Shown: piece by piece, positions 3,571-64,000 of the stretch
How the letters are laid out: each line of letters opens with the position of its first letter
How positions within the stretch are numbered: the first letter of the stretch is position 1
NCBI GenBank assembly: GCA_965249615.1
Contig: CBDFMI010000005.1
Location: 186,001 to 250,000, forward strand
Source: G963555815 sp965249615 [NCBI: bacterium]
GTDB lineage: Bacteria; UBA8248; JACPRG01
Direction: 5' to 3'
Length of the DNA stretch: 64,000 bases
Translations under genes and position numbers: made by a program
Notes under the pieces: model-generated
The model's input: only the letters and a program-made list of their open reading frames with translations
What the model was told of the DNA's origin: nothing
The model's database searches: none

Positions 3571-3677
3571 TTTCACCGGCGTTTCAATCGGGCGGGCCGC
3601 TTTTTTTGAATGGCCCAGGAGACAAAAAGCGCCAAGCCAGCGTCAGGGGGGGGCTCCTCTGGGGCCCTCTGAAAACC

Positions 3678-4387
3678 TCAGAAGGATTTGGTCTCCCCTG
3701 GCTGAAACTCCACCACTTCAAGATTGGCGATCCCACGGGTCTCCTTTCGGAAGGTTTCTGGTGTCCCCGTGACAGGGGGAAGGTTCCGTAGTGGCAGGGG
3801 ATGGCGGTTTGAATCCCCAGGAGCCGGCAGGCATAGGCCGCCTCGCGGGGGTCCATCGTGAAGTGGCTTCCAATGGGAAGGATGCCGATGGTGGGCCGGT
3901 AGAGTTCTCCGATGATCTTCATGTCCCCGAAGACGGAGGTGTCGCCTGCGATGTAGACCCGAACCCCGTTCTCGAACTCGACCACGTAGCCGGCCGCCTC
4001 GCCGAGATAGACGTTCCCCCCGTTCTCGACAGCGGAGGAGCTGTGCTGGGCGTGGGTCATGGTGAATTTGATGCCCAAGACCTCCTGGGTGCCGCCTTTG
4101 TTCATGCCGCTTACCTTCCCGACCCCTTTCTCGCCGAGCCAGACGGCGACCTCGTTTTGGGCGACGATGGGGGGCTTATGGGTCTTGGCGAGGGGGATCA
4201 CATCCCCTACGTGGTCGAAGTGTCCGTGGGTGATCAGGATGAGGTCGCACTTTTCGACCTTTTTCTGGTCCTGGGGACAGGAGGGGTTTTCCTCGAGCCA
4301 AGGGTCCAAGTAAAGTGTTTTCTTTCCCGGCGTATCTATTTTGAAGCTCGCATGCCCGAGCCAGGTGATGCTCAGCTTATCCGCCAT
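3678..4387 (-). pseudogene. UPF0173 metal-dependent hydrolase (metallo-beta-lactamase fold), frameshifted near the C terminus
   Basis: The start ATG at 4387 has an AGGAG site. The protein shows the metal-binding motif THGHFDHVGD, a central AGDTSVFGDM (Asp ligand) and the closing His in IPCHYGTFP, as in UPF0173/UlaG-like hydrolases. After HYGTFPL the literal frame runs on for about 65 unrelated residues to 3584. Adding one base in the five-G run at 3775-3779 restores the expected family ending VTGTPETFRKE...EVVEFQPGETKSF, with a stop at 3680-3678. So the gene is either inactivated only at its tail or mis-assembled. All metal ligands precede the shift. The substrate is unknown. Confidence 0.88.
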
Positions 4388-8550: not shown

Positions 8551-10623
8551 GTGATGAGCCCCGCAAAGAAGTACACCCTTTCGCCTCCGGCCCAGCGCCG
8601 GGAGTTTAGGGTGGATTATGGGGCCGATCTCAACTCGGAGCAGCGAACCGTCGTGATGACCCCCGGGGGGCCCATGGTGGTCATCGCGGGGGCGGGGAGC
8701 GGGAAGACTCGGACGGTCACCTACCGGGTGGCGCGCCTCATCGAGTCGGGCGAGGACCCGCAGCGGATCCTTCTCCTCACCTTCACCAACAAGGCCGCCA
8801 GTGAGATGCTCCGCCGCGTCGAGGGCCTCATCCAGTCGAACGCCCGAAGGGTCTGGGGGGGAACCTTTCATCACATAGGGAACCTCATCCTGCGCCGGCA
8901 CGCAGAGGCCGTAGGCTTTAACCCTCAGTACTCCATCATGGACCGAGAGGATTCCTCGGATCTCCTCAACGTTTGTGCCACCGACGTCGGGATCAACTTC
9001 AAGGAGAAGCGTTTTCCCAAGGGCAACGTCCTCCTCGACATCATCTCATTCGCCTCGAACACACTGACTTCTCTTCCAGAGCTCGTTCAGCAGAGATACC
9101 CCTACTTCGAAGAGCTTCTCCCGGAGATCGAGCGGGTATCGGCCCGCTATGGGGTTAGAAAGCGGGAGATGAACCTTTTGGATTTCGACGACCTCCTCAT
9201 GCTTTGGCTCCGCCTCCTGAGGGAGCACCCCGCCGTTCTCGAAAGCTATCAGGGCCGGTTCCGCCAGATCATGGTAGACGAATACCAAGACACGAATCGG
9301 CTTCAAGGGGAGATCATCGACCTTCTGGGCGCCCACCACCGGAACGTCATGGCGGTGGGAGATGACGCACAGAGTATCTATTCTTTTCGGGGGGCGGATT
9401 TCTCCAACATCATGGAGTTTCCCAAACGCTATCCCGACGCCCAGGTCTTCCGGCTCGAGACCAATTACCGAAGCACCCCCCAGATCCTCTCCCTGGCCAA
9501 CGAGAGCATTGCCCACAACATCCACCAGTATGAGAAACGCCTGCAGGCCGTCCGAGGGGAGGGCCCCCTGCCCATCCTCGTTCCCGCCCGGGACGTGCTC
9601 CAGCAAGCGGACTTCGTGACACAGCGGATCCTGGAGATGCGGGACGAGGGGATCCCCCTCGAGGAGATGGCGGTCCTTTATCGGGCGCACTTTCACTGTA
9701 TGGAGCTTCAGATGGAGCTCACCCGGCGGGGAATCCCCTTTGAGATCCGTTCCGGGCTCCGGTTCTTTGAACAGCGCCACGTTAAGGACGTGACGGCCCA
9801 CCTCAAAGTTGCCGTCAACCCCCTTGACGAGATCGCCTGGAAACGGATCCTCCTCCTGATCACGGGGGTGGGGAACGCAACGGTCCACCGCCTCTGGTCT
9901 CATCTTTCCAAGCTGTCAGAACCCCTGTCGGCCCGGGGGACTGACAAGACAACGGCCCTCTTCCCACGGGCCTCACGACCCGCTTGGGCACGCCTGGCGG
10001 GGGTTCTGGAGAAACTGCGCACGGAGGAATTCCTCAGCCAACCGTCCGAGATGATCCGCCTTGTGGTCCAGGAGAGCTATGAGGAGTACATGCAGAAAAA
10101 TTTCACCAACTACACCTCCCGACTCGAGGATCTGGAACAACTGGCCCGATTCGCAGAACAGTGGTCTTCTAAGGGCGAAGAGGCCTCCGAGGTCTTCCTG
10201 AGTGAGCTGGCGCTCATGTCGGCGGCGTCCGGGGAGGAGGCGACCGAGACGGATGAGGACGAGCGGGTGACCCTCAGCTCGGTCCACCAGGCAAAAGGTC
10301 TCGAATGGCGGGTTCTTTTCATCATCTGGCTTTCTGACGGGCGCTTTCCCTCCAGCCGCGCGCTTCAAGACGAGGCGGGGGAAGAGGAGGAACGCCGCCT
10401 CTTTTATGTGGCCGCCACCCGCGCCCAGGAGCATCTTTACCTTTGCTACCCGATCCTCGAGATGGATCGCTACCGAATGAGCACCTTCTCCAGGCCTTCC
10501 CGGTTTCTCAAAGAGATCCCGGCGGCCTTGATGGAGGCGTGGTCCTTGGATGAGGGCCTGGAGGTTTCAAGGGAAGGCTTGGGGGAGGAGGATATCTCCC
10601 AGGTCGGCGGGAGCTGGGAGTAA
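8551..10623 (+). CDS. UvrD/PcrA-type superfamily 1 DNA helicase
   Basis: 690 residues (GTG 8551, ATG 8554 next; GGAAGG site just upstream). SF1A motifs appear in order: Q motif LNSEQRTVV, Walker A AGAGSGKTRT (residues 46-55), Walker B VDEYQDTN (near 242), motif III GDDAQSIYSFRGA, motif IV ETNYRST, motif V SVHQAKGLEW (near 577) and motif VI YVAATRAQEHL. The enzyme should unwind DNA 3' to 5' in repair or replication. It is shorter than typical UvrD and lacks a nuclease domain. trkA starts five bases after its stop, an unusual partner that probably only reflects shared transcription. Confidence 0.94.
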   Translation: MMSPAKKYTLSPPAQRREFRVDYGADLNSEQRTVVMTPGGPMVVIAGAGSGKTRTVTYRVARLIESGEDPQRILLLTFTNKAASEMLRRVEGLIQSNARRVWGGTFHHIGNLILRRHAEAVGFNPQYSIMDREDSSDLLNVCATDVGINFKEKRFPKGNVLLDIISFASNTLTSLPELVQQRYPYFEELLPEIERVSARYGVRKREMNLLDFDDLLMLWLRLLREHPAVLESYQGRFRQIMVDEYQDTNRLQGEIIDLLGAHHRNVMAVGDDAQSIYSFRGADFSNIMEFPKRYPDAQVFRLETNYRSTPQILSLANESIAHNIHQYEKRLQAVRGEGPLPILVPARDVLQQADFVTQRILEMRDEGIPLEEMAVLYRAHFHCMELQMELTRRGIPFEIRSGLRFFEQRHVKDVTAHLKVAVNPLDEIAWKRILLLITGVGNATVHRLWSHLSKLSEPLSARGTDKTTALFPRASRPAWARLAGVLEKLRTEEFLSQPSEMIRLVVQESYEEYMQKNFTNYTSRLEDLEQLARFAEQWSSKGEEASEVFLSELALMSAASGEEATETDEDERVTLSSVHQAKGLEWRVLFIIWLSDGRFPSSRALQDEAGEEEERRLFYVAATRAQEHLYLCYPILEMDRYRMSTFSRPSRFLKEIPAALMEAWSLDEGLEVSREGLGEEDISQVGGSWE

Positions 10624-54531: not shown

Positions 54532-54573
54532 CTGCGGCCAGGACAGAGTTTTGTAAGATAAACAAGGTTCCCG

Positions 54574-55134
54574 ATGCTAACATTTCAAATCAAAAAAGAG
54601 TTCCCCTTCACACCGAGTGAGCAACACTACCTGCGGGCGATATACGAGCTTCAGGAGGAGCAGGGGTACGCCCGGGTCACGGATGTCGCTCGCAAGCTCA
54701 ACATCGGCAAAGGGGCCGTTTCTTTGGCTCTGAAAGGGCTGGTCGAGCGCGATCTGATACGCCACCCCCACTACCAAGTCATCGAGCTCTTGCCCCAGGG
54801 GAAGGTGGCGGCCAAGCAAGTGATGAGCCGGTTTGCCGTCCTCAAACATTTCCTTGAACGGGTTTTAGGCGTCAAAAAGAACATGGCTTACGTTGACGCC
54901 TGCCTGATGGAGCATTTCATCAGTGGCGAAACGCTGGATCGCCTCATTGACCTCATTCGTTTCTTTGAGCTGGAAGATGACCTGGTCCGAGAGGCCGTGC
55001 AGCGGTTTCAGGCCTACCGGCGAACCTGCGAGAGCACGGAGCATTGTCCGATCTGCGAGTTCAACTGCGAGGTGGTCCTTCCCGAGTTGGAGAATTCAGC
55101 TGCGGACCCCGGGCCGGGCCACACGGTGAGGTGA
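54574..55134 (+). CDS. DtxR/MntR-family metal-dependent transcriptional regulator
   Basis: 186 residues. Residues 12-75 are the DtxR helix-turn-helix (SEQHYLRAIYELQEEQGYAR, VTDVARKLNIGKGAVSLALK, GLVERDLIRH). A dimerisation/metal domain follows (LKHFLERVLGV, DACLMEHFISGETLDRL). The C terminus carries a cysteine cluster CESTEHCPICEFNCEVV not seen in classical DtxR, perhaps a metal or iron-sulfur site. It directly precedes an iron ABC importer, so it is probably the iron (or manganese) repressor of this locus. An intrinsic terminator follows. Confidence 0.9.
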   Translation: MLTFQIKKEFPFTPSEQHYLRAIYELQEEQGYARVTDVARKLNIGKGAVSLALKGLVERDLIRHPHYQVIELLPQGKVAAKQVMSRFAVLKHFLERVLGVKKNMAYVDACLMEHFISGETLDRLIDLIRFFELEDDLVREAVQRFQAYRRTCESTEHCPICEFNCEVVLPELENSAADPGPGHTVR

Positions 55135-55224
55135 TATCAAGGCCAAAAGTTCCCGAAGGGAACCTTTGCCTGTTCCCAATTCCTGACCAGCTACTTCAGC
55201 CCCATCGAGGCCGCAAGGAAGCCA

Positions 55225-55260
55225 GCCAAGGAAGGGAAAAAATTCCTTTCCCGGCTTTTT
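55225..55260 (+). terminator. Rho-independent terminator between the DtxR gene and the iron importer
   Basis: A nine-pair stem (55230-55238 with 55243-55251) extended by GCC/GGC, a four-A loop and five T at 55256-55260. It separates the regulator from fbpA, or attenuates read-through into it. Confidence 0.8.
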
Positions 55261-55318
55261 CATGAGTGGGAGGCGAGGCACTCGTCAAGCTTCTGTCTCA
55301 TTAGGGAGAAAAAGACTA

Positions 55319-56335
55319 ATGGCACTGTTTAGATCTCGGATGAGTTTTTTTCATGCGATTGCCTGCTTTGCTCTCGCCCCGCTTTTCCTTCTTCTTTGGC
55401 CCCCCTTCTCAGGGGCTCAAGAGCTTGTGGTCTATTCGGGGCGAAAGGAGATTGCCATTAAACCGGTGATCGAGGCCTTCGAGAAGAAGACCGGTATCCG
55501 GGTGGCCTTGAAGATCGGAAAGACGGGCGGGTTCATTAATCAACTCATACAGGAGAGCCGCAACCCGCAAGCCGACGTCTTCATCTCGACGACGGCGGGG
55601 GCGATCATCTCGGTCTCGGATCGGGATCTCTTCCATCCCTATGTTTCCCCGATCGCAAGCTCCATTCCGGACGTCTACAAGGGCCCTGATGGCCTTTGGA
55701 CGGGGATCTCCGGGCGAGCTCGAATCCTGATGTATAACACCCAGCTCATCAAGCCTGAAGAAGTGCCGAGGTCTGTCTTCGAGCTAACGGATCCAAAATA
55801 CCGAGGTCTTCTGGCCATCGCCAGCACTCGCGAGCGGACCACCCTGGGCTGGCTCAGCGCCCTGCTGGACTTCTTGGGCGAGGCAGAGGCCAAGGCCTAT
55901 ATCCAGAAACTTCGGGCCAACGGTCTTCACATCCTTCCAGATAACACGGACGTCCGCCGGGGCGTTGGAAATGGGGAGTTCGCCCTTGGCCTGACGAATT
56001 CCCCGAATTTCCATCTCACCTTGAGGGAGGGGGACCCCGTTGGGGTGGTCTTTCCGGATCAGGGCACTGATCAGATGGGGATACTTATCAATCCCAACAC
56101 GGTTTCCATCGTGAAAGGGGCAGAAAATCTCGACGAGGCCAAGCAGTTTGTGGATTTCATCCTTTCCCCGGAGGTGGCTGGGATCCTTGTTCAAAATGCC
56201 TTCGAGATCCCCCTTCACCCCGATGTGACCCCCGTGGGTGTCCAAGGTCTCGGGGATTTTAGTCCAGCCGCCGTGACCCAAAGCCGACTGGGGTCTCTCG
56301 CTGAGCGCACCCTAGAGATTTTCCCCGACTTCTGA
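55319..56335 (+). CDS. Iron(III) ABC transporter substrate-binding protein (FbpA-like)
   Basis: 338 residues from the ATG at 55319 (AGGGAG upstream). A signal peptide ends near PPFSGAQ. The mature part begins ELVVYSGRKEIAIKPVIEAF, the family-1 periplasmic ferric-binding pattern. PQADVFISTTAGA, NPNTVSIVKGAENLDEAK and the C-terminal FVDFILSPEVAGIL also fit. The FbpA tyrosine pair is not obvious at the usual place, so the ligand set may differ. Permease and ATPase genes follow at once. Other family-1 ligands such as thiamine or phosphonate cannot be fully excluded. Confidence 0.88.
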   Translation: MALFRSRMSFFHAIACFALAPLFLLLWPPFSGAQELVVYSGRKEIAIKPVIEAFEKKTGIRVALKIGKTGGFINQLIQESRNPQADVFISTTAGAIISVSDRDLFHPYVSPIASSIPDVYKGPDGLWTGISGRARILMYNTQLIKPEEVPRSVFELTDPKYRGLLAIASTRERTTLGWLSALLDFLGEAEAKAYIQKLRANGLHILPDNTDVRRGVGNGEFALGLTNSPNFHLTLREGDPVGVVFPDQGTDQMGILINPNTVSIVKGAENLDEAKQFVDFILSPEVAGILVQNAFEIPLHPDVTPVGVQGLGDFSPAAVTQSRLGSLAERTLEIFPDF

Positions 56336-56342
56336 GATATCG

Positions 56343-57953
56343 ATGACGCTGGAGACAATCGCCAGGAGGCCGTCACGAGTTCGGACCCGTCGTTCTCTCG
56401 GCGCCGTCAAGTGGTCTATCCCCGTTGCGGTCCTCCTCGTATTCTTTCTGAGCCCCCTCGCCAATCTCCTCGTGGAGGCCGTTGGCATTAAGTCTCCTGC
56501 CCTGGCCACCCTCTTTCGGTCAACCTTGCCCTGGCTTATCCTTCGGACGCTCCTGCTGGCCCTGGCGACCACCCTGGCGGCCGTCTCCTTGGGGCTTCCT
56601 CTGGCTTGGCTTGCCGTCAGGACTGATGTTCCGGGGCGAAGGCTTTGGAGGTGGCTCGGCGCTCTTCCCCTGGCCATCCCCCCCTATATTGGGGCCCTTG
56701 CCTTTCTCAACCTCCTGGGTCCGGGCGGGGTTGTCAATGTCCTCTATCGAGAGGCGACGGGTGCCCCGGGCCTCATCGTCAACCTCTACAGCTTTGGGGG
56801 AACGGTCTTCGTCCTTTCCCTCTTCACCTATCCCCTTGTCTTCCTCTTCACCGCTTCGGCCCTGGAGGGGAGCCACGCTACCTTCGAGGAGGTGGCCCGA
56901 AGCCTTGGTCACCGCTCAGGCAGGGTCTTCTGGCGGGTCACCTTCCCCCTGCTTCGTCCGTCCCTTTTGGCCGGGGGCTTGCTCGTCTTCCTCTATGTCT
57001 TGGCGGACTTTGGCGCAGTCTCCGTCCTGCGCCAGCAGACTTTCACGACAGAGATCTTTCATTTCCTGAATACGCGCTTTGATCAGGCGGCGGCCGCGGC
57101 CCTCTCCATCATCCTGACGATCATCACTGTTTCTGTTCTCCTGGCTCAACGTCGGTTCCTCGGGCGGAGAAGCTATGTCCAGATTGAGGGCCGGGCACGC
57201 CCGGCTCGCCCCAATCGCCTCGGACCTTGGAGGCCGATCGCTGTCCTTTATCCAGTGACCCTGACGGCCGCCTCCCTGGGTCTCCCCATCTTTCTCCTCC
57301 TTTTACAGATTGAATCTTGGTCGGCTGCCGTGGCGACCGTGCTGGACCAGGCTGGTTTTCTCTGGGCGAGTGTCTGGACGGCCGCCGTCGCGGCCACGGC
57401 GGGAGTCGGCATTGGACTCTTTGCAGGCTATCTAGCCCTTCGCAGGGCCCGCCAGGGCGGGGCCTCCCTCTTCTGGGGCCTTCAGCTCTGTTATGCCATC
57501 CCCGGAACGGTCCTGGGGCTCAGCCTGATCCTCCTCTATAGCTCCTGGCTGCCTTGGGTCTACGGGACAGCCGTCATGGTGGTGATTGGCTACACGATTC
57601 GTTTCATCCCTCAGGCTGTCCAGGGCATCACGGGGGCCCTTCGGCAAGCCCACCATCAACTGGAGGAGGCGGCCAGGGGGCTTGGGCTTGGGGCCCTGGA
57701 GACTGTCCGGCGGGTCGTCATCCCCCTCATTCGCTCCGGTCTTCTGGCCACCTGGGTCCTCGTCTTCATCTCTTCCATGAAGGAGTTGGCGGCCACCCTC
57801 CTGTTGCGCCCCGCCGGCTTTGATACGTTGCCCGTGCGCATTTGGATCCACACCATTGAGGCCGATTACTCCAAGGCGTCCACCCTAGCCCTGGTCCTTG
57901 TCGCGGTTTCCGCCCTTCCTCTCCTTTTGGTGGAGTGGAGGAGGATCACCTGA
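56343..57953 (+). CDS. Iron ABC transporter permease (FbpB-like, two fused halves)
   Basis: 536 residues, about twelve membrane helices in two homologous halves, as in FbpB. Each half has the EAA coupling loop: FEEVARSLGHRSGRVFWRV in the first and LEEAARGLGLGALETVRRV in the second. It starts seven bases after the binding protein and forms the inner-membrane channel of the importer. Confidence 0.92.
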   Translation: MTLETIARRPSRVRTRRSLGAVKWSIPVAVLLVFFLSPLANLLVEAVGIKSPALATLFRSTLPWLILRTLLLALATTLAAVSLGLPLAWLAVRTDVPGRRLWRWLGALPLAIPPYIGALAFLNLLGPGGVVNVLYREATGAPGLIVNLYSFGGTVFVLSLFTYPLVFLFTASALEGSHATFEEVARSLGHRSGRVFWRVTFPLLRPSLLAGGLLVFLYVLADFGAVSVLRQQTFTTEIFHFLNTRFDQAAAAALSIILTIITVSVLLAQRRFLGRRSYVQIEGRARPARPNRLGPWRPIAVLYPVTLTAASLGLPIFLLLLQIESWSAAVATVLDQAGFLWASVWTAAVAATAGVGIGLFAGYLALRRARQGGASLFWGLQLCYAIPGTVLGLSLILLYSSWLPWVYGTAVMVVIGYTIRFIPQAVQGITGALRQAHHQLEEAARGLGLGALETVRRVVIPLIRSGLLATWVLVFISSMKELAATLLLRPAGFDTLPVRIWIHTIEADYSKASTLALVLVAVSALPLLLVEWRRIT

Positions 57954-57994
57954 TGGGCATCGCCTCGCTGCTCGGCCTGAAGGACGTGTGACCC

Positions 57995-59122
57995 TTGTCA
58001 ACGCCCATTATCAAAGTTGAAGACCTTCGGATGCGCTATGGGGCGCGCGAGCCCTGGGCCGTCTCCGACGTCTCTCTTTTTTTGGAGGAGGGAGAGATCC
58101 TGACCCTCCTTGGCCCAAGCGGGTGCGGCAAGACGACCATGCTCCGCCTCATCGCAGGCTTTGAGGTCCCCGAACGGGGCCGAGTCGTCATCGATGGGCA
58201 TTTGGTGGCGGGGGAGGGGGCCTGGTATCCCCCCGAGCAGAGGGGCGTGGGAATGGTCTTTCAGAACTATGCCCTCTTCCCTCACCTGACAGTGGCAGAG
58301 AACGTGGGTTTTGGCCTGCACCCCTGGCCGCTTCCGCTTCGAAACGCCCGGATCGGGGAAGTCCTGTGCTTGGTGGACCTGCTGGCCCTTCGGGATCGCT
58401 ATCCCCACGAGCTCTCCGGGGGGCAGCAGCAGCGCATCGCCCTCGCCCGGGCCCTGGCCCCGGGTCCCCTGGTCATCCTCCTCGACGAGCCCTTCAGCAA
58501 TCTGGACGCCGACATGAGGGGTCAGGTCCGCCAGGAAGTCCGAGACATCCTGCGGCGCTCCAAGATGACGGCCCTTTTTGTGACCCACGAGCAGCAGGGG
58601 GCCTTTGAGATCTCAGACCGGATCGCCGTCATGAACAAGGGTCGAATCGAGCAGTTGGACACGCCAGAGAACATCTTCCACAACCCCGGCACCCCCTTTG
58701 TGGCCCGGTTTCTCGGCCAGACTGACCTCGTGCCCGGCGTCATCCGCGGAGATTGCGTGGAGACAGAGCTTGGCAGCTTCCCCTATTTCACCGACGGCGG
58801 GGGCCTCCCCGATGGGATGCGTGTCGAGGCGGTCATCCGGCCGGCCGATGTAGACGTCATTCCCTCCCGGCAGGGAACGGCCGCGGTGAAGGGACGTCGC
58901 TTTCGAGGCTCAGACAACCTCTACACGTTGATCCTCGCCTCGGGAACCAAAGTCCATAGCGCCACGCCCTGGGATTTCGTCCTCCCCCTTGGAAGCCAGG
59001 TTTCGGTCTCGATGGAGCCCCTTCGGGTGGTCGTGTTTCCGGTGGGGGAGGAAAAAACATCTGAAAACCGGAGCAAAGAAACGCCGAGTTCGACTCTTTC
59101 AGGAAGGATGTCAAATGGATAA
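57995..59122 (+). CDS. Iron ABC transporter ATP-binding protein (FbpC-like)
   Basis: 375 residues from a TTG at 57995. Walker A is GPSGCGKTTM, Q loop GMVFQNYALFPHLTV, signature HELSGGQQQRIA, Walker B LVILLDEPFSNLD, H loop VTHEQQGAFEI. A TOBE-type domain makes up the last 120 residues. It fuels the importer. The 3' end overlaps the P19-like gene by eight bases, so the two are translationally coupled. Confidence 0.93.
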   Translation: MSTPIIKVEDLRMRYGAREPWAVSDVSLFLEEGEILTLLGPSGCGKTTMLRLIAGFEVPERGRVVIDGHLVAGEGAWYPPEQRGVGMVFQNYALFPHLTVAENVGFGLHPWPLPLRNARIGEVLCLVDLLALRDRYPHELSGGQQQRIALARALAPGPLVILLDEPFSNLDADMRGQVRQEVRDILRRSKMTALFVTHEQQGAFEISDRIAVMNKGRIEQLDTPENIFHNPGTPFVARFLGQTDLVPGVIRGDCVETELGSFPYFTDGGGLPDGMRVEAVIRPADVDVIPSRQGTAAVKGRRFRGSDNLYTLILASGTKVHSATPWDFVLPLGSQVSVSMEPLRVVVFPVGEEKTSENRSKETPSSTLSGRMSNG

Positions 59123-59618
59123 CAGGAGCATGTACTCACTAAGTTGGCTTGTCGCAGGATTCCTCTTCCTTTGGACCGGAATTGCCTCTGGGGACGAACA
59201 AGTCTTGGCCCAGGAGGTCCGCGAAGGACTTTCCATCGTCGTCATCTCGGAAACCGCTGAGGGGGTCCACCCTCCCGACCTGACGCTTCCGGCGAATCAG
59301 GCGACTCATCACATCGAGGTCTTCGCCACCTTCGCCGAAGGAAACCTTTACGGGGGACATCCCGCGAGTTTTTTCCCCTACCTCAGACTCCTAGTGACTA
59401 CCCGTCGGGCGGGAAAGGAAGAGATTTTTCGGACCCCCCTCATCCCCCTGGCTCATCATCGCGGGCTTCACTATGGGGCCAATGTCAACCTTCCTGAGAA
59501 GGGACGCTACGAGATGACCCTTCGGGTGGAGCCGCCTGGTGAGCACGAGGTGGGGCGTCACGACGATGTGGGGGACTGGTTTCCCCCCTTCGAGGTGACC
59601 TTCGATCTTGTCTATTAA
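59115..59618 (+). CDS. Periplasmic P19/Tp34-like metal-binding protein (Iron_transport family)
   Basis: 167 residues from the ATG at 59115 with AAGGATG upstream. A signal peptide (LSWLVAGFLFLWTGIASG) is followed by a beta-sandwich pattern: THHIEVFATFAEGNLY, PYLRLLVTT, PLAHHRGLHYGANVNLPEKG and YEMTLRVEPP. P19 and Tp34 bind copper/iron on a His/Met/Glu site; candidate His are at THH and LAHHRGLHYG. Here it is linked to an FbpABC-type importer rather than to an FTR1 permease. It may oxidise, reduce or hand over iron. It is the last gene before a structured leader. Confidence 0.82.
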   Translation: MDNRSMYSLSWLVAGFLFLWTGIASGDEQVLAQEVREGLSIVVISETAEGVHPPDLTLPANQATHHIEVFATFAEGNLYGGHPASFFPYLRLLVTTRRAGKEEIFRTPLIPLAHHRGLHYGANVNLPEKGRYEMTLRVEPPGEHEVGRHDDVGDWFPPFEVTFDLVY

Positions 59619-59663
59619 ACGCAGACTATTGGGACCTTTGTCGGAAGGGGGTGAGAAATGAGG

Positions 59664-59850
59664 TGCTAGCAAGGTAAGCTTGTGCGCTCTTAAAAAGAGA
59701 AGGCTACCGGCCACAGGATGGCTGTCCGAGCCGGTAGCCCCGCAACCAACCGCTGGCCTTGCTCCGCTGACGTCGGCGCAGTCTGATTGTAGGATTTTTG
59801 CTGCAAAAGTCAACTGCTGAGAGCAAGGCTTACCTTGAAAAGGAGGTAGG
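59664..59850 (+). promoter_or_regulatory. Riboswitch-like leader before the porin gene, class unassigned
   Basis: The 233 bases between the P19-like gene and the porin start hold no gene but strong structure. A closing helix AGCAAGG (59668-59674) with CCTTGCT (59757-59763) encloses a CTCTT/AAGAG hairpin and a ten-pair hairpin GGCTACCGGC/GCCGGTAGCC (59702-59711 with 59730-59739). Alternatively CAAGGTAAGC (59670-59679) pairs perfectly over ten bases with GCTTACCTTG (59828-59837), just before the AGGAGG of the porin gene. The two pairings share bases and exclude each other, which is classic switch design. The CCGCAACC after the big hairpin recalls SAM-type and NiCo RNAs, but no consensus fits. 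Confidence 0.5.
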
Positions 59851-59851
59851 C

Positions 59852-61194
59852 ATGCAACGCCCAGCCGCCATTGGTTTTGTATGGTGCTTTCTCCTCTTGG
59901 GGACCGCTTTTGCGTGGGCCCAAGAGGAGGATGTGAAGGGGCGAATTGAGAACCTGGAAAGGGAGCTTGGGGAAGTCCGGGAACAACTTGAGAGGCAGGG
60001 GGAGGAGGTGGAGAGGAGAACGCGTGTCCTTGGGGAGGAGGTGGAGTCTTTCAGGGTGAGGCTCGCCGTTCCAGAGGTGAGAGAACTAAAGAGTGTTTAC
60101 GGTCTCGGACCTGCGGCGTCGAAGGTCTATGGCGTTGAACAAGGGCTCTCCATAGGTGGTTACGGGGAGTGGACCCTCCAGACGTTTCACGGGGATGTAA
60201 CGGACGAGCGGAACAAGGCTGACATCTTGCGCACGGTCCTTTACACTGGTTTCAAGTTCAGCGACCAGTTCGTCCTGAACGCCGAGTTCGAATTCGAGCA
60301 CGGCACCAGCTCGTCCACATCGAGTTCCTCCAATGGGTCGGTCTCGGTGGAGTTCGCCTACCTGGACTGGCTGATAGCGCCCCCCATCAACTTTCGGGTG
60401 GGTGGTGTTCTCATCCCGGTGGGTTTTCTCAACGAGGTCCACGAACCCCCCTTCTTCCACGGGGTGATTCGCCCTTCAGTGGAGCGGCAGATCATACCGA
60501 CCACTTGGCGGGAGATCGGAGCAGGGTTCTTTGGTGAGCCCTTGCCAGGGCTTGAGTATCGCACCTATGTGGTCAACGGGATGAACGCCAAGGGCTTCTC
60601 AAAGAGCAATATCCGGGGGGGCCGACAGAAACTGAACCGAGCCTTCGCGGAGGATTTTGCCCTGACCGGACGCTTGGACTATACTGGGGTACCGGGCCTT
60701 CTGGTGGGCGGTTCTTTCTTCTGGGGGGACTCAGGCCAGGATTAAAAGTTTGCGGGAAAGAAAGTAGACGCAGAGCTCCTGATGGGGGACCTCCACGCCC
60801 AGTACCGTTTTCGTGGTCTGGAGCTGAGGGCTCTCGGCGTGGCGACCCATATCGGTGATGCTGACCAACTTAGCAATGACCCGGACATCAAGGGTCCGAT
60901 CAGCAGTTTCCTCTGGGGATGGTATGCGGAGGCTGCCTACAATGTGCTCCCCCTCTTCCTCCCGGAGACCGGTCAGTTTCTGGCCCCTTTTTCCGGTGGG
61001 AACAATTCAACACCCAGGCGGATGTGCCCAGCGGGTTCACCCCCGATCGCTCGAGGGATAGAGACCTTCTCACGCTCGGGCTCACCTATAAGCCGATCCC
61101 GAACCTCGTCTTCAAGGCCGACTATCGAAACTTCTTCCCGGACGCCGGGGTAGAGGCGGCCGAGTTCAACTTGGGTGTGGGGTTTGTGTTTTAA
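59852..61194 (+). pseudogene. Porin-like outer-membrane beta-barrel protein, interrupted by a stop codon and a frameshift
   Basis: The start is ATG 59852, supported by AGGAGG; a signal peptide (AIGFVWCFLLLGTAFAWAQ) precedes a coiled coil (NLERELGEVREQLERQGEEV). A barrel follows, with YGEWTLQTF, ERQIIPTTWREIGAGFFGE and LEYRTYVVNG, as in phosphate-selective-type porins. An in-frame TAA at 60743-60745 interrupts it after WGDSGQD, yet the same frame continues KFAGKKVDAEL and HAQYRFRG. A missing base in the T run at 60988-60992 then breaks it again; the next frame carries RWEQFNTQADVP and ends with the barrel terminus NLGVGFVF. About 447 residues if repaired. It is probably the outer-membrane port of the iron locus. 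Confidence 0.85.
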
Positions 61195-61215
61195 ACGATG
61201 GATTTTCCTTATGGG

Positions 61216-61245
61216 TCTCGGGAGGGGCTTGCTCCCCTCCCGAGA
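61216..61245 (+). promoter_or_regulatory. Perfect 12-bp hairpin abutting the ribosome binding site of the FMN-binding protein gene
   Basis: TCTCGGGAGGGG (61216-61227) and CCCCTCCCGAGA (61234-61245) form a perfect stem with a six-base loop. No T run follows, so it is not a normal terminator. The AAGGGG site begins one base later. It may set the level of translation or stabilise mRNA at the porin boundary. Confidence 0.6.
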
Positions 61246-61254
61246 AGGGGTTCA

Positions 61255-61806
61255 ATGCGGCAGTTTGAAATGTTGCTGGTCGGTGTTCTCCTCTTTCTCC
61301 TTGGCGTGGCTGGAGAAGTCCAAGGCCAGGTGTTTTTGTCTAAGGAGGAAGCCCTTGAGCTGGCCTTCCCAGAGGCCGATCAGGTAGAACGGAAGACCTT
61401 CTTTCTCACGGAAGATCAAAAGGAAAGGGCTGAAGGTCTTGCGAGGAGCGCACTCGATTTCAATCTCTTCACCTTCTTTGTTGGAAAAAAGGGAGAAAAT
61501 GTCCTTGGTTATGCCGCCATTGACGTTCACGTTGTCCGCACCTTCCCCGAGGCCTTCCTGATCATTCTCGGTCCGGATGGCCGGGTGACAAATACTGTCC
61601 TCCTGGCCTTCTATGAGCCGAGAGAATATCTTCCGAGCGAGAGGTGGTTGGAACAGTTTCCAGGAAGCGACTTGAACTCAGACCTCAGGGTCGGACGTAG
61701 AATCCACGGTATCGCGGGTTCGACGCTAACCGCTCGGGCTGTGACAGGGGCGGTGAGAAAGGTCCTGGCCCTTTACCGGGTGTTGATCCAGGAAGGAGAT
61801 GGGTAA
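61255..61806 (+). CDS. FMN-binding-domain protein (covalently flavinylated, RnfG/NqrC-like)
   Basis: 183 residues from the ATG at 61255. A signal peptide (MLLVGVLLFLLGVAGEVQG) leads to one FMN_bind domain. GPDGRVTNTVLLAFYEP is the core, and HGIAGSTLTARAVTGAVRKV holds the flavinylation Thr of the [S/T]GxT-x-T type motif. Apo-protein would receive FMN through a phosphoester bond from ApbE, which is encoded two genes downstream. It is a periplasmic one- or two-electron carrier. The gene overlaps the next start (TAATG). Confidence 0.88.
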   Translation: MRQFEMLLVGVLLFLLGVAGEVQGQVFLSKEEALELAFPEADQVERKTFFLTEDQKERAEGLARSALDFNLFTFFVGKKGENVLGYAAIDVHVVRTFPEAFLIILGPDGRVTNTVLLAFYEPREYLPSERWLEQFPGSDLNSDLRVGRRIHGIAGSTLTARAVTGAVRKVLALYRVLIQEGDG

Positions 61807-62321
61807 TGCGATTTGTCGTGACAGGGGAGTGGAAACAAAACGACCTTTTGAGATTTATTCTTTACTTTTTTCTCCTTTATTCTTCTCTCCTCTGGGTGAC
61901 GAACCTCCTCCTGAACCTCGGAAAGATGGGCCTCACATATGGCTCGGTGGTTGCCTATTACCGGGGGGCGGAGGAACAATTCCTGCAGCCTCGAAGCTAT
62001 CTCGGGCTCCTGGAGATCACCCATTTTCATGTGTTCGCGATGGGCATTCTCATCCTGACGCTGACCCATCTTGCACTCTTCGTTCCCGTTCACCCTAGGT
62101 TTAAGTTCTGGCTCATTGGGGTTTCTTTCCTTTCCGCCATCTCGGACGAGGGGGGAGGTTGGCTGACCCGATTCGTCCACCCGGCTTTCGCCTACTTCAA
62201 GATCGGTTCTTTTCTTCTGTTCCAAATCTCCCTGGGTACCCTCATCCTCATCGTGTTTTTTTCCCTCCTGTTTTCACAACGAAATGCCTATTCGGAGGGC
62301 CCCGGAAATTCGGCGCCATGA
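61806..62321 (+). CDS. Four-helix membrane protein with intramembrane histidines (possible cytochrome b-like)
   Basis: 171 residues with about four hydrophobic helices: FILYFFLLYSSLLWVTNLLL, EITHFHVFAMGILILTLTHL, FKFWLIGVSFLSAIS and FLLFQISLGTLILIVFF. Helix two carries three His (THFH and THL), and RFVHPAF has another, compatible with haem ligands. It lies between the FMN-binding protein and ApbE, overlapping both, so it may pass electrons across the membrane to the flavin protein. Family not recognised. Confidence 0.8.
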   Translation: MRFVVTGEWKQNDLLRFILYFFLLYSSLLWVTNLLLNLGKMGLTYGSVVAYYRGAEEQFLQPRSYLGLLEITHFHVFAMGILILTLTHLALFVPVHPRFKFWLIGVSFLSAISDEGGGWLTRFVHPAFAYFKIGSFLLFQISLGTLILIVFFSLLFSQRNAYSEGPGNSAP

Positions 62322-63385
62322 CCCCCGCCCATTGGCAGAGGATGAATAGGCCTAAGGTGCGGTCCTTTTTCCGGTCTCCTTCGAAGCTTACAAGATTTAT
62401 TCTGCCGTTATTCCTTCTTTTCAGTCCCCCCCCTGCCTCAAGCCAGGTCCTTTTGGAGGAGAGCCACTATGTGATGGGAACCTGGTTGAGAATCACCATG
62501 CCGGAATCAGACGCCCAGTCCGGCAGAAAAATCCTCCGCCAGGCCTTCGAGGAAGTGCAGCGCCTGGACGGCCTCCTCAGTCACTATCGGCTAGATACCC
62601 CCCTGAGCCGCCTAAATTGTCAGGCGGGACGCGGTCCCCAGGAGGCCCCCTTTGAGCTGATGGAGGTGCTCCACATTTCAGCTCGATTAAGCCGTCTCAC
62701 GGAGGGGGCCTTCGACATCACGATCGGGCCCCTGGTCTCTCTATTAGAGGAGGCAAGTCGGAGCGGTTTCTGGCCGCAAGATCTCGGCGACGTTCTCCCG
62801 AATATTGGGTGGGAACTACTGCGTTTTCCGGGCGGAAACCAGGTGGAACTTTCCCGACCGGGAATGCACCTTGACCTTGGAGGGATCGGGAAGGGGTACG
62901 CGGTCGATCGGATCCGCGAGATCCTGATTGAGGCGGGGACACGCTCGGCCTTCCTCAATTTTGGTGAGAGTAGCCTCTTGGCCTTGGGCAACCCCCCGGA
63001 TTCCCCCTCTTGGAATATTCTGGTTCGAGGTCTCGAGCCCGACACCTTCCTTGGGGTCTTGTCCCTGCGGGACCAGGCTGTGTCTATTTCCTCCACCTTC
63101 GGTCGAACATTCCAGGTGGATGGGAAGACCTATGGACATATCTTTGACCCGAGGACAGGGGCCCCACTTTCTGAACCTGCCCTGGCAGTCGTCGTGGCAG
63201 TCAACGCCGCAGAGGCCGAGGCCCTGTCGACGGCGTTGCTGATCCTTGGCGCTGAGGAGGGATTTTCCCTCTTGGATCAATTCCCGGGCAGCGCTGCTCT
63301 CTATGCTTCCGATGAGGCTGTTAGAATGACGCCCGCTTTTGAAAAGCTCTTCGATTTAACCACCTTCGAGAAACAGGACGATTGA
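62318..63385 (+). CDS. apbE: FAD:protein FMN transferase ApbE
   Basis: 355 residues from the ATG at 62318, which overlaps the previous stop as ATGA; the longer upstream frame is a shadow. An N-terminal signal/anchor (LTRFILPLFLLFSPPPASS) places it in the periplasm. MGTWLRITM, the core HLDLGGIGKGYAVD, LNFGESSLLALG and HIFDPRTGAP are ApbE motifs. It attaches FMN from FAD to Thr/Ser of the target. The FMN_bind protein two genes upstream is the evident substrate. Confidence 0.94.
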   Translation: MTPAHWQRMNRPKVRSFFRSPSKLTRFILPLFLLFSPPPASSQVLLEESHYVMGTWLRITMPESDAQSGRKILRQAFEEVQRLDGLLSHYRLDTPLSRLNCQAGRGPQEAPFELMEVLHISARLSRLTEGAFDITIGPLVSLLEEASRSGFWPQDLGDVLPNIGWELLRFPGGNQVELSRPGMHLDLGGIGKGYAVDRIREILIEAGTRSAFLNFGESSLLALGNPPDSPSWNILVRGLEPDTFLGVLSLRDQAVSISSTFGRTFQVDGKTYGHIFDPRTGAPLSEPALAVVVAVNAAEAEALSTALLILGAEEGFSLLDQFPGSAALYASDEAVRMTPAFEKLFDLTTFEKQDD

Positions 63386-63547
63386 CGCCTCCAACAGGAG
63401 TGGGCTGAGGGCTTCCTTTGGGACCTCTGAGTTCTCCTTCGCCATCAGAAGATGGGCCAGATATTTTATTCGCCAGCTAGAATGAAAATGATATTTCTGT
63501 GAGGGTTTCTGTTTTTGCCGTCCTGGTTCCTCGGAGGAGCTTCAATC

Positions 63548-64000
63548 ATGACCCTAAGCTTACGAGAATTCTAGACAGTCCTGCACGGGACAGTTTTCGG
63601 GGCCATCTATCTCATCGCCTTCGCCGGAGGCTTTGCGGGCCTTTGGAGCCTTCGAAAAGAGTTTGTCACGGCGGAAGGGCTTCGGGAACGGCTTCGCCGC
63701 CTCTACGCCGGGGTCTGGGGGATGGCGATCATATGCTGGGTCGCGGTGCTCAGCGGGACCTACATCGTTTATCCCTGGTATCGGGCGGCCATCCCAGAGA
63801 GCCCCCGCTCGAGGCTCCTGGCCGATCCCGCGAAGGCGGCCTGGCACACCTTTGGGATGGAGTGGAAGGAGCACATCGGCTGGCCGTCGGCGATCCTGGC
63901 AACGGCGGTCGCCTTTGTCGTGACCTACTATGGCCCCGCGCTTTTGAAACGACAGCAGTTGCGGAAGGCTGTCCTCGTTCTTTTTGTTCTCGCCTTTTTC
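63548..64000 (+). pseudogene. Multi-helix membrane protein with an in-frame TAG near the start (runs off the window)
   Basis: GGAGGAG at 63533-63539 precedes the ATG at 63548. After MTLSLREF an in-frame TAG occurs at 63572-63574, but the same frame continues at once with TVLHGTVFGAIYLIAFAGGF, LWSLRKEFVTAEGLRERL, WVAVLSGTYIVYPWYR and further helices to the window end without another stop. No ATG or GTG restart exists before 63720, inside the second helix. A Leu codon (TTG) changed to TAG would explain it. The family is not recognised; the histidines (HGT, WHTF, EHIGW) could bind haem. It may belong to the flavin/iron module. Confidence 0.7.

What the first reader, a model, noticed from the sequence alone, without database searches (positions are those of the whole stretch)
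54574..64000. Iron ABC importer joined to a flavinylated periplasmic redox chain
Seen: DtxR-type regulator, FbpABC-like importer, P19/Tp34-like protein overlapping the ATPase gene, porin-like barrel, FMN_bind protein, His-bearing membrane protein and ApbE, all on one strand with tight or overlapping junctions. Known: ApbE flavinylates FMN_bind proteins, and P19 proteins bind iron/copper in the periplasm. Inference: electrons pass from the membrane protein to the covalent flavin and then to Fe(III), or to the P19-like protein, so iron is reduced or released for import. P19 is usually known beside FTR1-type permeases; here it pairs with an ABC importer, and a dedicated outer-membrane port is included.
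Basis: partly seen in the sequence, partly recalled or inferred. Interest (0 to 1): 0.75.

Follow-up and report, generated by a model that had tools for sequence, protein, structure and literature searches.

The report
Iron-controlled flavin electron-transfer gene cassette
A bacterial contig carries a four-gene set (an outer-membrane pore, a flavin-carrying protein, an unknown membrane protein and the enzyme that attaches the flavin) whose relatives in many Myxococcota sit behind iron-switch DNA sites, so it is probably a little-known iron-reducing uptake system, while the iron importer beside it here looks like a neighbour and not a fixed partner.

Summary
The genes are there, but in two units 233 nt apart. 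Unit A: DtxR-type regulator, ABC importer, P19-like protein. Unit B: porin, RnfG-like FMN_bind protein, small membrane protein, ApbE. The window's porin gene is broken (in-frame stop and frame change).

Unit B recurs across Myxococcota without unit A. None of 45 relative loci (6-20 kb each) shows an SBP, permease, P19 or DtxR homologue, and 0 of 50 cassette genomes has P19 (PF10634). So the proposed FbpABC-P19-flavin chain is not a conserved system. The window's substrate-binding protein also lacks the di-tyrosine of ferric-binding proteins.

The iron theme survives on new evidence. A Fur-box profile built from feoAB regions of the same phylum hits 39 of 48 cassette promoters, against 6 of 384 control upstreams. 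Fur or FeoB lies within 5 kb in 8 of 52 genomes.

Best reading: unit B is an iron-starvation-induced, flavin-based periplasmic ferric reductase with its own porin. Fur control in relatives is well supported by sequence. Ferric reduction, heme, covalent flavin, and the same role in the window are inferred. The membrane protein has no significant Pfam match. New variant of a known kind (flavinylated assimilatory iron reductases).

The parts
54574..55134 (+). Unit A: DtxR-family metalloregulator. Has Cys in the 'ACLMEH' stretch where MntR has Glu; Cys is typical of the iron-type DtxR/IdeR (recalled)
   Evidence: PF01325/PF02742; alignment to MntR chains
55262..56335 (+). Unit A: periplasmic substrate-binding protein. 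Nearest solved relatives are ferric-binding proteins, but the di-Tyr, His and Glu ligand positions are not kept; start may be 55319 or 55340
   Evidence: start codons read
56343..57953 (+). Unit A: ABC permease, two BPD_transp_1 halves fused
57995..59122 (+). Unit A: ABC ATPase with TOBE domain
59115..59618 (+). Unit A: P19/FetP/Tp34-family periplasmic protein; keeps HxE and the HYGAN His, replaces the Met and Asp recalled as metal ligands
   Evidence: PF10634; alignment to the best PDB match 3nrp
59619..59851 (+). Gap between the units: structured leader (z -2.32), no Rfam match at the gathering score, no Fur box
59852..61194 (+). Unit B gene 1: outer-membrane porin-like protein with an N-terminal coiled-coil-like stretch (by eye); broken here (in-frame TAA 60743-60745, frame change about 60985-61000)
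   Evidence: tblastn of four intact homologues
61198..61806 (+). Unit B gene 2: RnfG/NqrC-like FMN_bind protein, signal-like N-terminus (by eye); AGSTLT flavinylation motif; likely start 61255
61806..62321 (+). Unit B gene 3: four-helix membrane protein of an unnamed family; invariant H73, H75, H88
62318..63385 (+). Unit B gene 4: ApbE FAD:protein FMN transferase, signal-like N-terminus (by eye)
   Evidence: PF02424 4.2e-61

Best explanation
Unit B (porin, FMN_bind, membrane protein, ApbE) is a self-standing, iron-regulated, flavin-based periplasmic electron-transfer system, most likely an assimilatory ferric reductase. ApbE attaches FMN to the Thr of the RnfG-like protein (shown only by motif). 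The His-bearing membrane protein passes electrons from quinol or a cytoplasmic donor, perhaps through b-heme held between two subunits, to the FMN (inferred). The FMN reduces Fe(III) chelates that enter through the dedicated porin (inferred). The Fe(II) is taken up by FeoB in the Myxococcota relatives (inferred from co-occurrence). In the window the importer beside it is an FbpABC-type system with a P19-like protein under a DtxR-type regulator. That neighbour fits the iron theme but is not a conserved partner.
For: Conserved cassette: all four families in 6 of the 9 genome-contig loci, two more being cut by contig ends (L004, L010) and one without a porin hit (L008); in 30 phylum loci the membrane protein in 29, ApbE in 28, porin in 26; all four families in 29 of 45 longer loci. 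Regulation: a profile built from 17 sites of 26 feoAB regions of the same phylum scores 14 bits or more in 39 of 48 cassette upstreams, against 6 of 384 control upstreams and 4 of 240 shuffles; with a stretch widened afterwards 46 of 48 against 6 of 325. The motif resembles the published delta-proteobacterial Fur box (PMC545781 passages). Genes: Fur within 5 kb in 6 of 52 cassette genomes (7 with a fragment at a contig end in G141) and FeoB in 2 of 52; Fur is the commonest Pfam family among the 124 neighbour proteins scanned, of 226 listed (7); on the tree the Fur neighbourhood needs two changes and the FeoAB one a single change. Flavin: RnfG match through the flavin-Thr motif, ApbE. FeoB in 50 of 52.
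Against: No ferric-reductase activity, heme or covalent flavin was shown. In the window itself no Fur box lies before the porin, the SBP or the regulator (at most 4.4 bits; 5.5 before the FMN_bind gene), and the porin gene is broken. The membrane protein has no significant match to a known electron-transfer family. 36 of 45 loci show neither Fur nor FeoAB beside the cassette (FeoB was searched only in the 52 strong genomes), and many neighbours are housekeeping genes. Fur control also fits an iron-sparing electron carrier.
Confidence: 0.6

Rival explanations
1. Iron-sparing carrier: under iron limitation the flavin protein replaces an iron-containing periplasmic electron carrier (as flavodoxin replaces ferredoxin), and the porin brings in a non-iron electron acceptor.
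For: Fur boxes alone do not show the substrate. In Ideonella the same porin and flavin genes follow a MauG-type di-heme peroxidase; in Prevotella and Pseudoalteromonas a homologous porin stands with imelysin and a di-heme oxidoreductase instead of flavin genes.
Against: Fur or FeoB within 5 kb of the cassette in 8 of 52 genomes. No terminal oxidoreductase recurs in the cassette.
Confidence: 0.2
2. One reading: unit B delivers electrons to P19 or to Fe(III) so that the FbpABC-type importer beside it can import iron, as one co-adapted machine.
For: Adjacency and same strand in the window; DtxR-type regulator with an iron-type Cys position (recalled meaning); published P19 clusters with FMN_bind genes (PMC8238504).
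Against: 0 of 45 relative loci have an SBP, permease, P19 or DtxR homologue; P19 in 0 of 50 cassette genomes; 233-nt gap between the units; SBP without the di-Tyr pair.
Confidence: 0.12
3. Decayed locus: in the window organism unit B is no longer functional, because the porin and the gene after ApbE are interrupted.
For: In-frame stop and frame change in the porin; in-frame stop in the gene after ApbE.
Against: FMN_bind, membrane protein and ApbE are intact and conserved. Errors of the record are as likely.
Confidence: 0.08

Closest known systems
P19-associated flavinylation clusters (Meheust et al. 2021, PMC8238504)
   Same: P19 family protein near an FMN_bind gene; proposed redox role in iron assimilation
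   Different: Those clusters are described with the FTR1 permease and mostly in Gram-positives (passage). Here the importer is ABC-type and the flavin cassette lives without P19 in relatives
PepSY-like and MsrQ-like flavinylation systems (same paper)
   Same: ApbE, flavinylated periplasmic protein and a membrane electron-transfer protein; Fur repression reported for PepSY clusters (passage)
   Different: The membrane protein here has no match to those Pfam families, and a dedicated porin is part of the cassette
DUF4405/FezC cytochromes (PMC11334425, sections 10-12 read)
   Same: Small His-bearing membrane protein beside flavinylation or iron genes; FezC is modelled to form heme sites by homodimerisation
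   Different: No DUF4405 match in 18 members; His pattern HxHx12H on one helix
RnfG / NqrC
   Same: FMN_bind family by profile, flavinylation-type motif
   Different: Not part of an Rnf/Nqr operon; in three loci (L057-L059) the cassette merely adjoins one (L059 by cluster membership only)
Fur-regulated hypothetical porins of delta-proteobacteria (Rodionov et al. 2004, PMC545781)
   Same: Porins predicted under a delta-type Fur box (passages)
   Different: The passages seen mention no flavin genes; whether that paper's psp porin is homologous to this one was not tested

Membership tests
ApbE flavin transferase | PF02424 domain above cut-off | tested here: met
   207 bits against 25.6; export signal only read by eye
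FMN_bind / RnfG-NqrC | Profile match and S/A-G-A/S-T-x-T/S motif (motif recalled) | tested here: met
   RnfG 9eri E 1.6e-11; motif kept in alignment A3. Pfam PF04205 alone is below its cut-off
FMN_bind / RnfG-NqrC | Covalent FMN on the motif Thr | not testable with these tools
   needs protein
P19 (Iron_transport) | PF10634 domain | tested here: met
   79.6 bits against 21
P19 (Iron_transport) | Metal ligands of FetP/P19 (ligand set recalled) | tested here: inconclusive
   HxE, HYGAN His and RH kept; Met and Asp positions replaced
FbpA-type ferric-binding protein | Overall similarity to solved ferric SBPs | tested here: met
   7w3w E 1.5e-36
FbpA-type ferric-binding protein | Di-tyrosine iron ligands (ligand role recalled) | tested here: not met
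   In the five alignments shown (two of them HitA) the YY faces Pro-Asn in four and a gap in one
P19-FMN_bind iron assimilation cluster | P19 conserved with the flavin genes | tested here: not met
   0 of 50 cassette genomes with PF10634; 0 of 45 loci
P19-FMN_bind iron assimilation cluster | FTR1 permease | not tested
   No protein of 54-64 kb scanned was named so; no dedicated FTR1 search was run
PepSY, MsrQ or DUF4405 membrane electron donors | Sequence match of the membrane protein to these Pfam families | tested here: not met
   None among 18 members at E up to 1
b-type cytochrome | Heme-b binding through conserved His pairs | tested here: inconclusive
   H73, H75, H88 invariant in 18 sequences; helical model, pLDDT 73.5, no significant fold match
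Fur regulon | Fur box before the cassette in relatives | tested here: met
   39 of 48 against 6 of 384
Fur regulon | Fur box before the cassette in the window | tested here: not met
   best score 1.3 bits before the porin
DtxR family, iron branch | Cys at the DtxR metal site in place of MntR Glu (recalled) | tested here: inconclusive
   'ACLMEH' aligned to MntR 'VEGIEH'; closest NCBIfam model is MntR, below its cut-off

The most novel reading that the evidence does not exclude
Unit B is an unrecognised, TonB-independent reductive iron-uptake system: a Fur-controlled porin of its own lets ferric chelates in, a flavinylated RnfG-like protein reduces them in the periplasm, and a new family of small membrane proteins (possibly homodimeric di-heme b cytochromes) feeds it electrons, so that FeoB or another importer takes up the Fe(II). 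It would be a further class of flavin-based membrane electron donor beside PepSY, MsrQ, NapH, DsbD, Nqr/Rnf and DUF4405.
Probability: 0.4. Interest if true: 0.72.

Novelty: new variant of a known kind. Interest (0 to 1): 0.55.

Why it matters
About half of the genomes with ApbE flavinylation machinery were reported to lack one of the characterised systems (PMC11334425 introduction, passage). This cassette gives one such orphan set a regulatory signature, a membrane protein family and a pore that can be tested together. If it reduces and admits iron without TonB, it adds a route for iron into Gram-negative cells and helps explain a porin family that occurs with different periplasmic redox modules in different phyla.

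Tried and rejected
Rejected: the joined FbpABC-P19-flavin machine as a conserved system. The window's P19 protein as a query gave 0 of 266 genomes of the phylum; the tool warns that an empty answer without a known positive shows nothing, so I lean on PF10634, for which one of 14 control genomes rang.

Rejected: a known riboswitch in the 233-nt leader. No Rfam family reaches its gathering score, and the leader has no blastn match among the loci held.

Led nowhere: fold search with the membrane protein. Foldseek gave no match at E 0.001 or below; VIA-align gave only general helical bundles, best Z 9.8. PepSY, b561, MsrQ and FezC folds were not among the rows shown, which excludes nothing. The porin model was poor (pLDDT 51.4), so no fold search was run with it; its barrel nature rests on strands in that weak model and on hits of remote homologues to barrel families, all below cut-off. 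The small membrane proteins of the Ideonella, Bradyrhizobium and Methylocystis clusters did not match the window's family by profile comparison (probability 1.8).

Led nowhere: DtxR, IdeR and MntR boxes recalled from memory were not found in the window above shuffles, except E. coli MntR before the regulator (13 of 20; 5 of 100 shuffles as good). The window organism's phylum was not determined: no whole genome is held, and the cassette tree leaves it on a long branch outside 35 of the 37 Myxococcota-phylum rows. A second phylum draw around G007 (70 of 235) turned out to be the same phylum and largely the same genomes, so it is not independent. A first gene calling by ORF length was poor in these GC-rich genomes and was replaced.

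Caveats on counts: absence of unit A in the 45 loci rests on blastp at 1e-5 against genes called by my own finder (third-position GC) within the DNA held (5.7-20.5 kb). Control upstreams come from the same loci with the same finder, so some control genes are misplaced; some of the six control hits are cassette genes (L072, L074) or neighbours. Nine of 48 cassettes missed at the first stretch; seven reached the threshold only after widening it post hoc; L069 and L072 did not. Two loci with the porin at a contig end were dropped (L043, L112); still held L043. The 17 profile sites were picked automatically with the recalled E. coli consensus, and a few (for example in L086 and L118) lie away from a feo start or look poor. 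The Fisher value is not corrected for kinship. Neighbour families cover 124 of 226 listed proteins, and only the first 25 of 103 families were shown. G141 was not labelled as a Fur neighbour on the tree. Papers: PMC8238504 abstract, outline and passages; PMC11334425 sections 10-12 and passages; PMC545781 and PMC12052999 passages; all others only as search listings. In the ten searches I saw no paper describing this four-gene cassette; only open-licence papers are held.
Full report
What is there. The 54.6-63.4 kb stretch holds nine genes on the + strand. Five form unit A: a DtxR-type regulator, a substrate-binding protein, a fused ABC permease, an ATPase and a P19-family protein whose start overlaps the ATPase stop by 8 nt. 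After 233 nt without a gene follows unit B: porin, FMN_bind protein, small membrane protein and ApbE, the last three overlapping by 1 and 4 nt. A tenth gene is cut by the window end. The porin is not intact: four homologues align to it in one frame with a stop inside and then in another frame for their last 69-94 residues. The gene after ApbE also has an in-frame stop. Whether these are errors of the record or real decay cannot be told.

Unit B stands on its own in relatives. One scan with the FMN_bind protein found nine loci, all from Myxococcota or 'Deltaproteobacteria' MAGs at 47-57% identity. Six of the nine hold all four families; L004 and L010 are cut by contig ends, and L008 has no porin hit. 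In a draw of 282 genomes of that phylum, 89 matched at E 0.001 and, by my count, 51 at 1e-25 or better. In the 30 loci returned, the membrane protein stands beside the FMN_bind gene in 29, ApbE near it in 28 and the porin in 26. In 45 longer loci, one per genome, 29 hold all four families near each other; in some of these ApbE lies on the other strand, for example in L057-L059, where it adjoins an Rnf operon.

Unit A is absent there. Of those 45 loci (5.7-20.5 kb held) none has a homologue of the window's SBP, permease, P19 or DtxR, and one has a general ABC ATPase. P19 (PF10634) is in 0 of 50 cassette genomes, which are all but one (G173) of the 51 strong ones; earlier 0 of 9. A close SBP homologue is in 1 of the 30 cassette genomes searched, with two more weak matches. 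FeoB is in 50 of 52. So unit B does not need P19 or FbpABC, and the pairing in the window is, on present evidence, a neighbourhood of one lineage.

Unit A is less clearly ferric than it looks. The SBP is nearest to solved ferric-binding proteins (7w3w, 1.5e-36), but the two neighbouring tyrosines that hold iron in them (role recalled) face Pro-Asn in four and a gap in one of the five alignments shown, and the positions recalled as His9 and Glu57 are Lys and Thr against HitA. The P19-like protein keeps HxE and the HYGAN His but not the Met and Asp (ligand identities recalled). The regulator has 'ACLMEH' where MntR has 'VEGIEH', the Cys being the iron-type residue of DtxR and IdeR (recalled). 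A palindrome at 55146-55166 before the SBP has a poorer copy over the regulator's start (54564-54584), one more at 8847-8867 and none before the porin (pattern built from the first site); this is weak evidence for an operator of unit A alone.

Iron evidence for unit B comes from its relatives. With the canonical Fur consensus (recalled), 27 of 36 porin upstreams reach 12 of 19 matches against 36 of 419 controls. To avoid fitting the motif to its own data I fetched 26 feoAB regions of the same phylum, built a profile from 17 sites in them, and scanned the cassettes: 39 of 48 reach 14 bits against 6 of 384 control upstreams (Fisher p about 2e-40, not corrected for kinship); shuffled upstreams reach it in 4 of 240. 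Strongly related loci give 31 of 37, the others 8 of 11. Widening the stretch afterwards gives 46 of 48 against 6 of 325. The profile's consensus, GAAAATGAAATTCATTTTC, resembles the delta-proteobacterial Fur box deduced in 2004 from feoAB, in a paper that also predicted Fur-controlled porins of unknown role (PMC545781, passages).

Neighbouring genes agree. Fur is the family most often met among the 124 neighbour proteins scanned (7). It lies within 5 kb of the cassette in 6 of 52 genomes, and FeoB in 2 of 52, where my arithmetic from mostly 1-3 Fur genes per genome of about 5 Mb expects well under one. In a seventh genome (G141) an N-terminal fragment of the FMN_bind gene lies at a contig end 1.7 kb downstream of Fur, with the rest on another contig. 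On a tree of 38 rows the Fur neighbourhood (six rows) needs at least two changes and the FeoAB one a single change. With the window that makes up to four separate meetings of the cassette with iron genes. Against this, 36 of 45 loci show no Fur, nor, where it was searched, FeoB beside the cassette.

The parts. The FMN_bind family matches RnfG of solved Rnf complexes at 1.6e-11 through the flavin-Thr motif. The membrane protein has four long helices in its model (pLDDT 73.5), invariant H73, H75 and H88 in 18 sequences, and no consistent Pfam, PDB-sequence or fold match. H75 and H88 are 13 residues apart on one helix; FezC, a ferrosome cytochrome, is modelled to form heme sites by pairing of two subunits (PMC11334425, section 12). 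A heme pair between two subunits is therefore my guess for the way electrons cross. The porin family is wider: on plasmids it occurs with FMN_bind, ApbE and another small membrane protein in Ideonella, Bradyrhizobium and Methylocystis, and with imelysin and a di-heme oxidoreductase in Prevotella and Pseudoalteromonas. The same kind of pore thus seems to go with different periplasmic redox modules.

Verdict. The most likely reading is an iron-starvation-induced flavin-based ferric reductase with its own porin (0.6), the main rival being an iron-sparing electron carrier (0.2). Shown by sequence: the cassette, its spread, its Fur boxes in relatives, its independence of P19. Inferred: covalent flavin, heme, iron as substrate, FeoB as partner, and that the window's copy works at all.

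Noticed in passing
window 59619-59851: Leader of the porin folds more stably than shuffles (z -2.32, 4 of 200 as good) with a 10-bp GC-rich hairpin and no Rfam family at the gathering score; possible unknown cis-acting RNA.
   Followed up: partly
window 55146-55166 and 54564-54584: Palindrome AAAGTTCCCGAAGGGAACCTT before the SBP with a poorer copy over the regulator's start codon and another at 8847-8867; candidate operator of the DtxR-type protein.
   Followed up: partly
window 63548-64000: Membrane protein gene after ApbE, cut by the window end, with an in-frame stop near its start; no homologue seen among the relatives' loci by blastp.
   Followed up: partly
L125:3884-8452, L128:3875-8111: Porin homologues in Prevotella and Pseudoalteromonas followed by imelysin and a di-heme oxidoreductase: the same kind of pore with a heme-based instead of a flavin-based partner set.
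   Followed up: partly
L123:3400-7787: Ideonella cluster: MauG-type di-heme peroxidase, porin, FMN_bind, ApbE, and a small membrane protein weakly like DUF4405 (E 0.0067, below cut-off).
   Followed up: partly
L068:5233-6519: A divergent cassette variant lies beside an HTTM / vitamin K-dependent gamma-carboxylase-like gene on the FMN_bind gene's strand.
   Followed up: no
L057, L058, L059: Cassette copies adjoin an Rnf operon, whose ApbE gene may serve both.
   Followed up: no
window 3584-4387: Metal-dependent hydrolase-like ORF whose C-terminal tail reads like an out-of-frame stretch (by eye); the window record may hold several frame errors.
   Followed up: no
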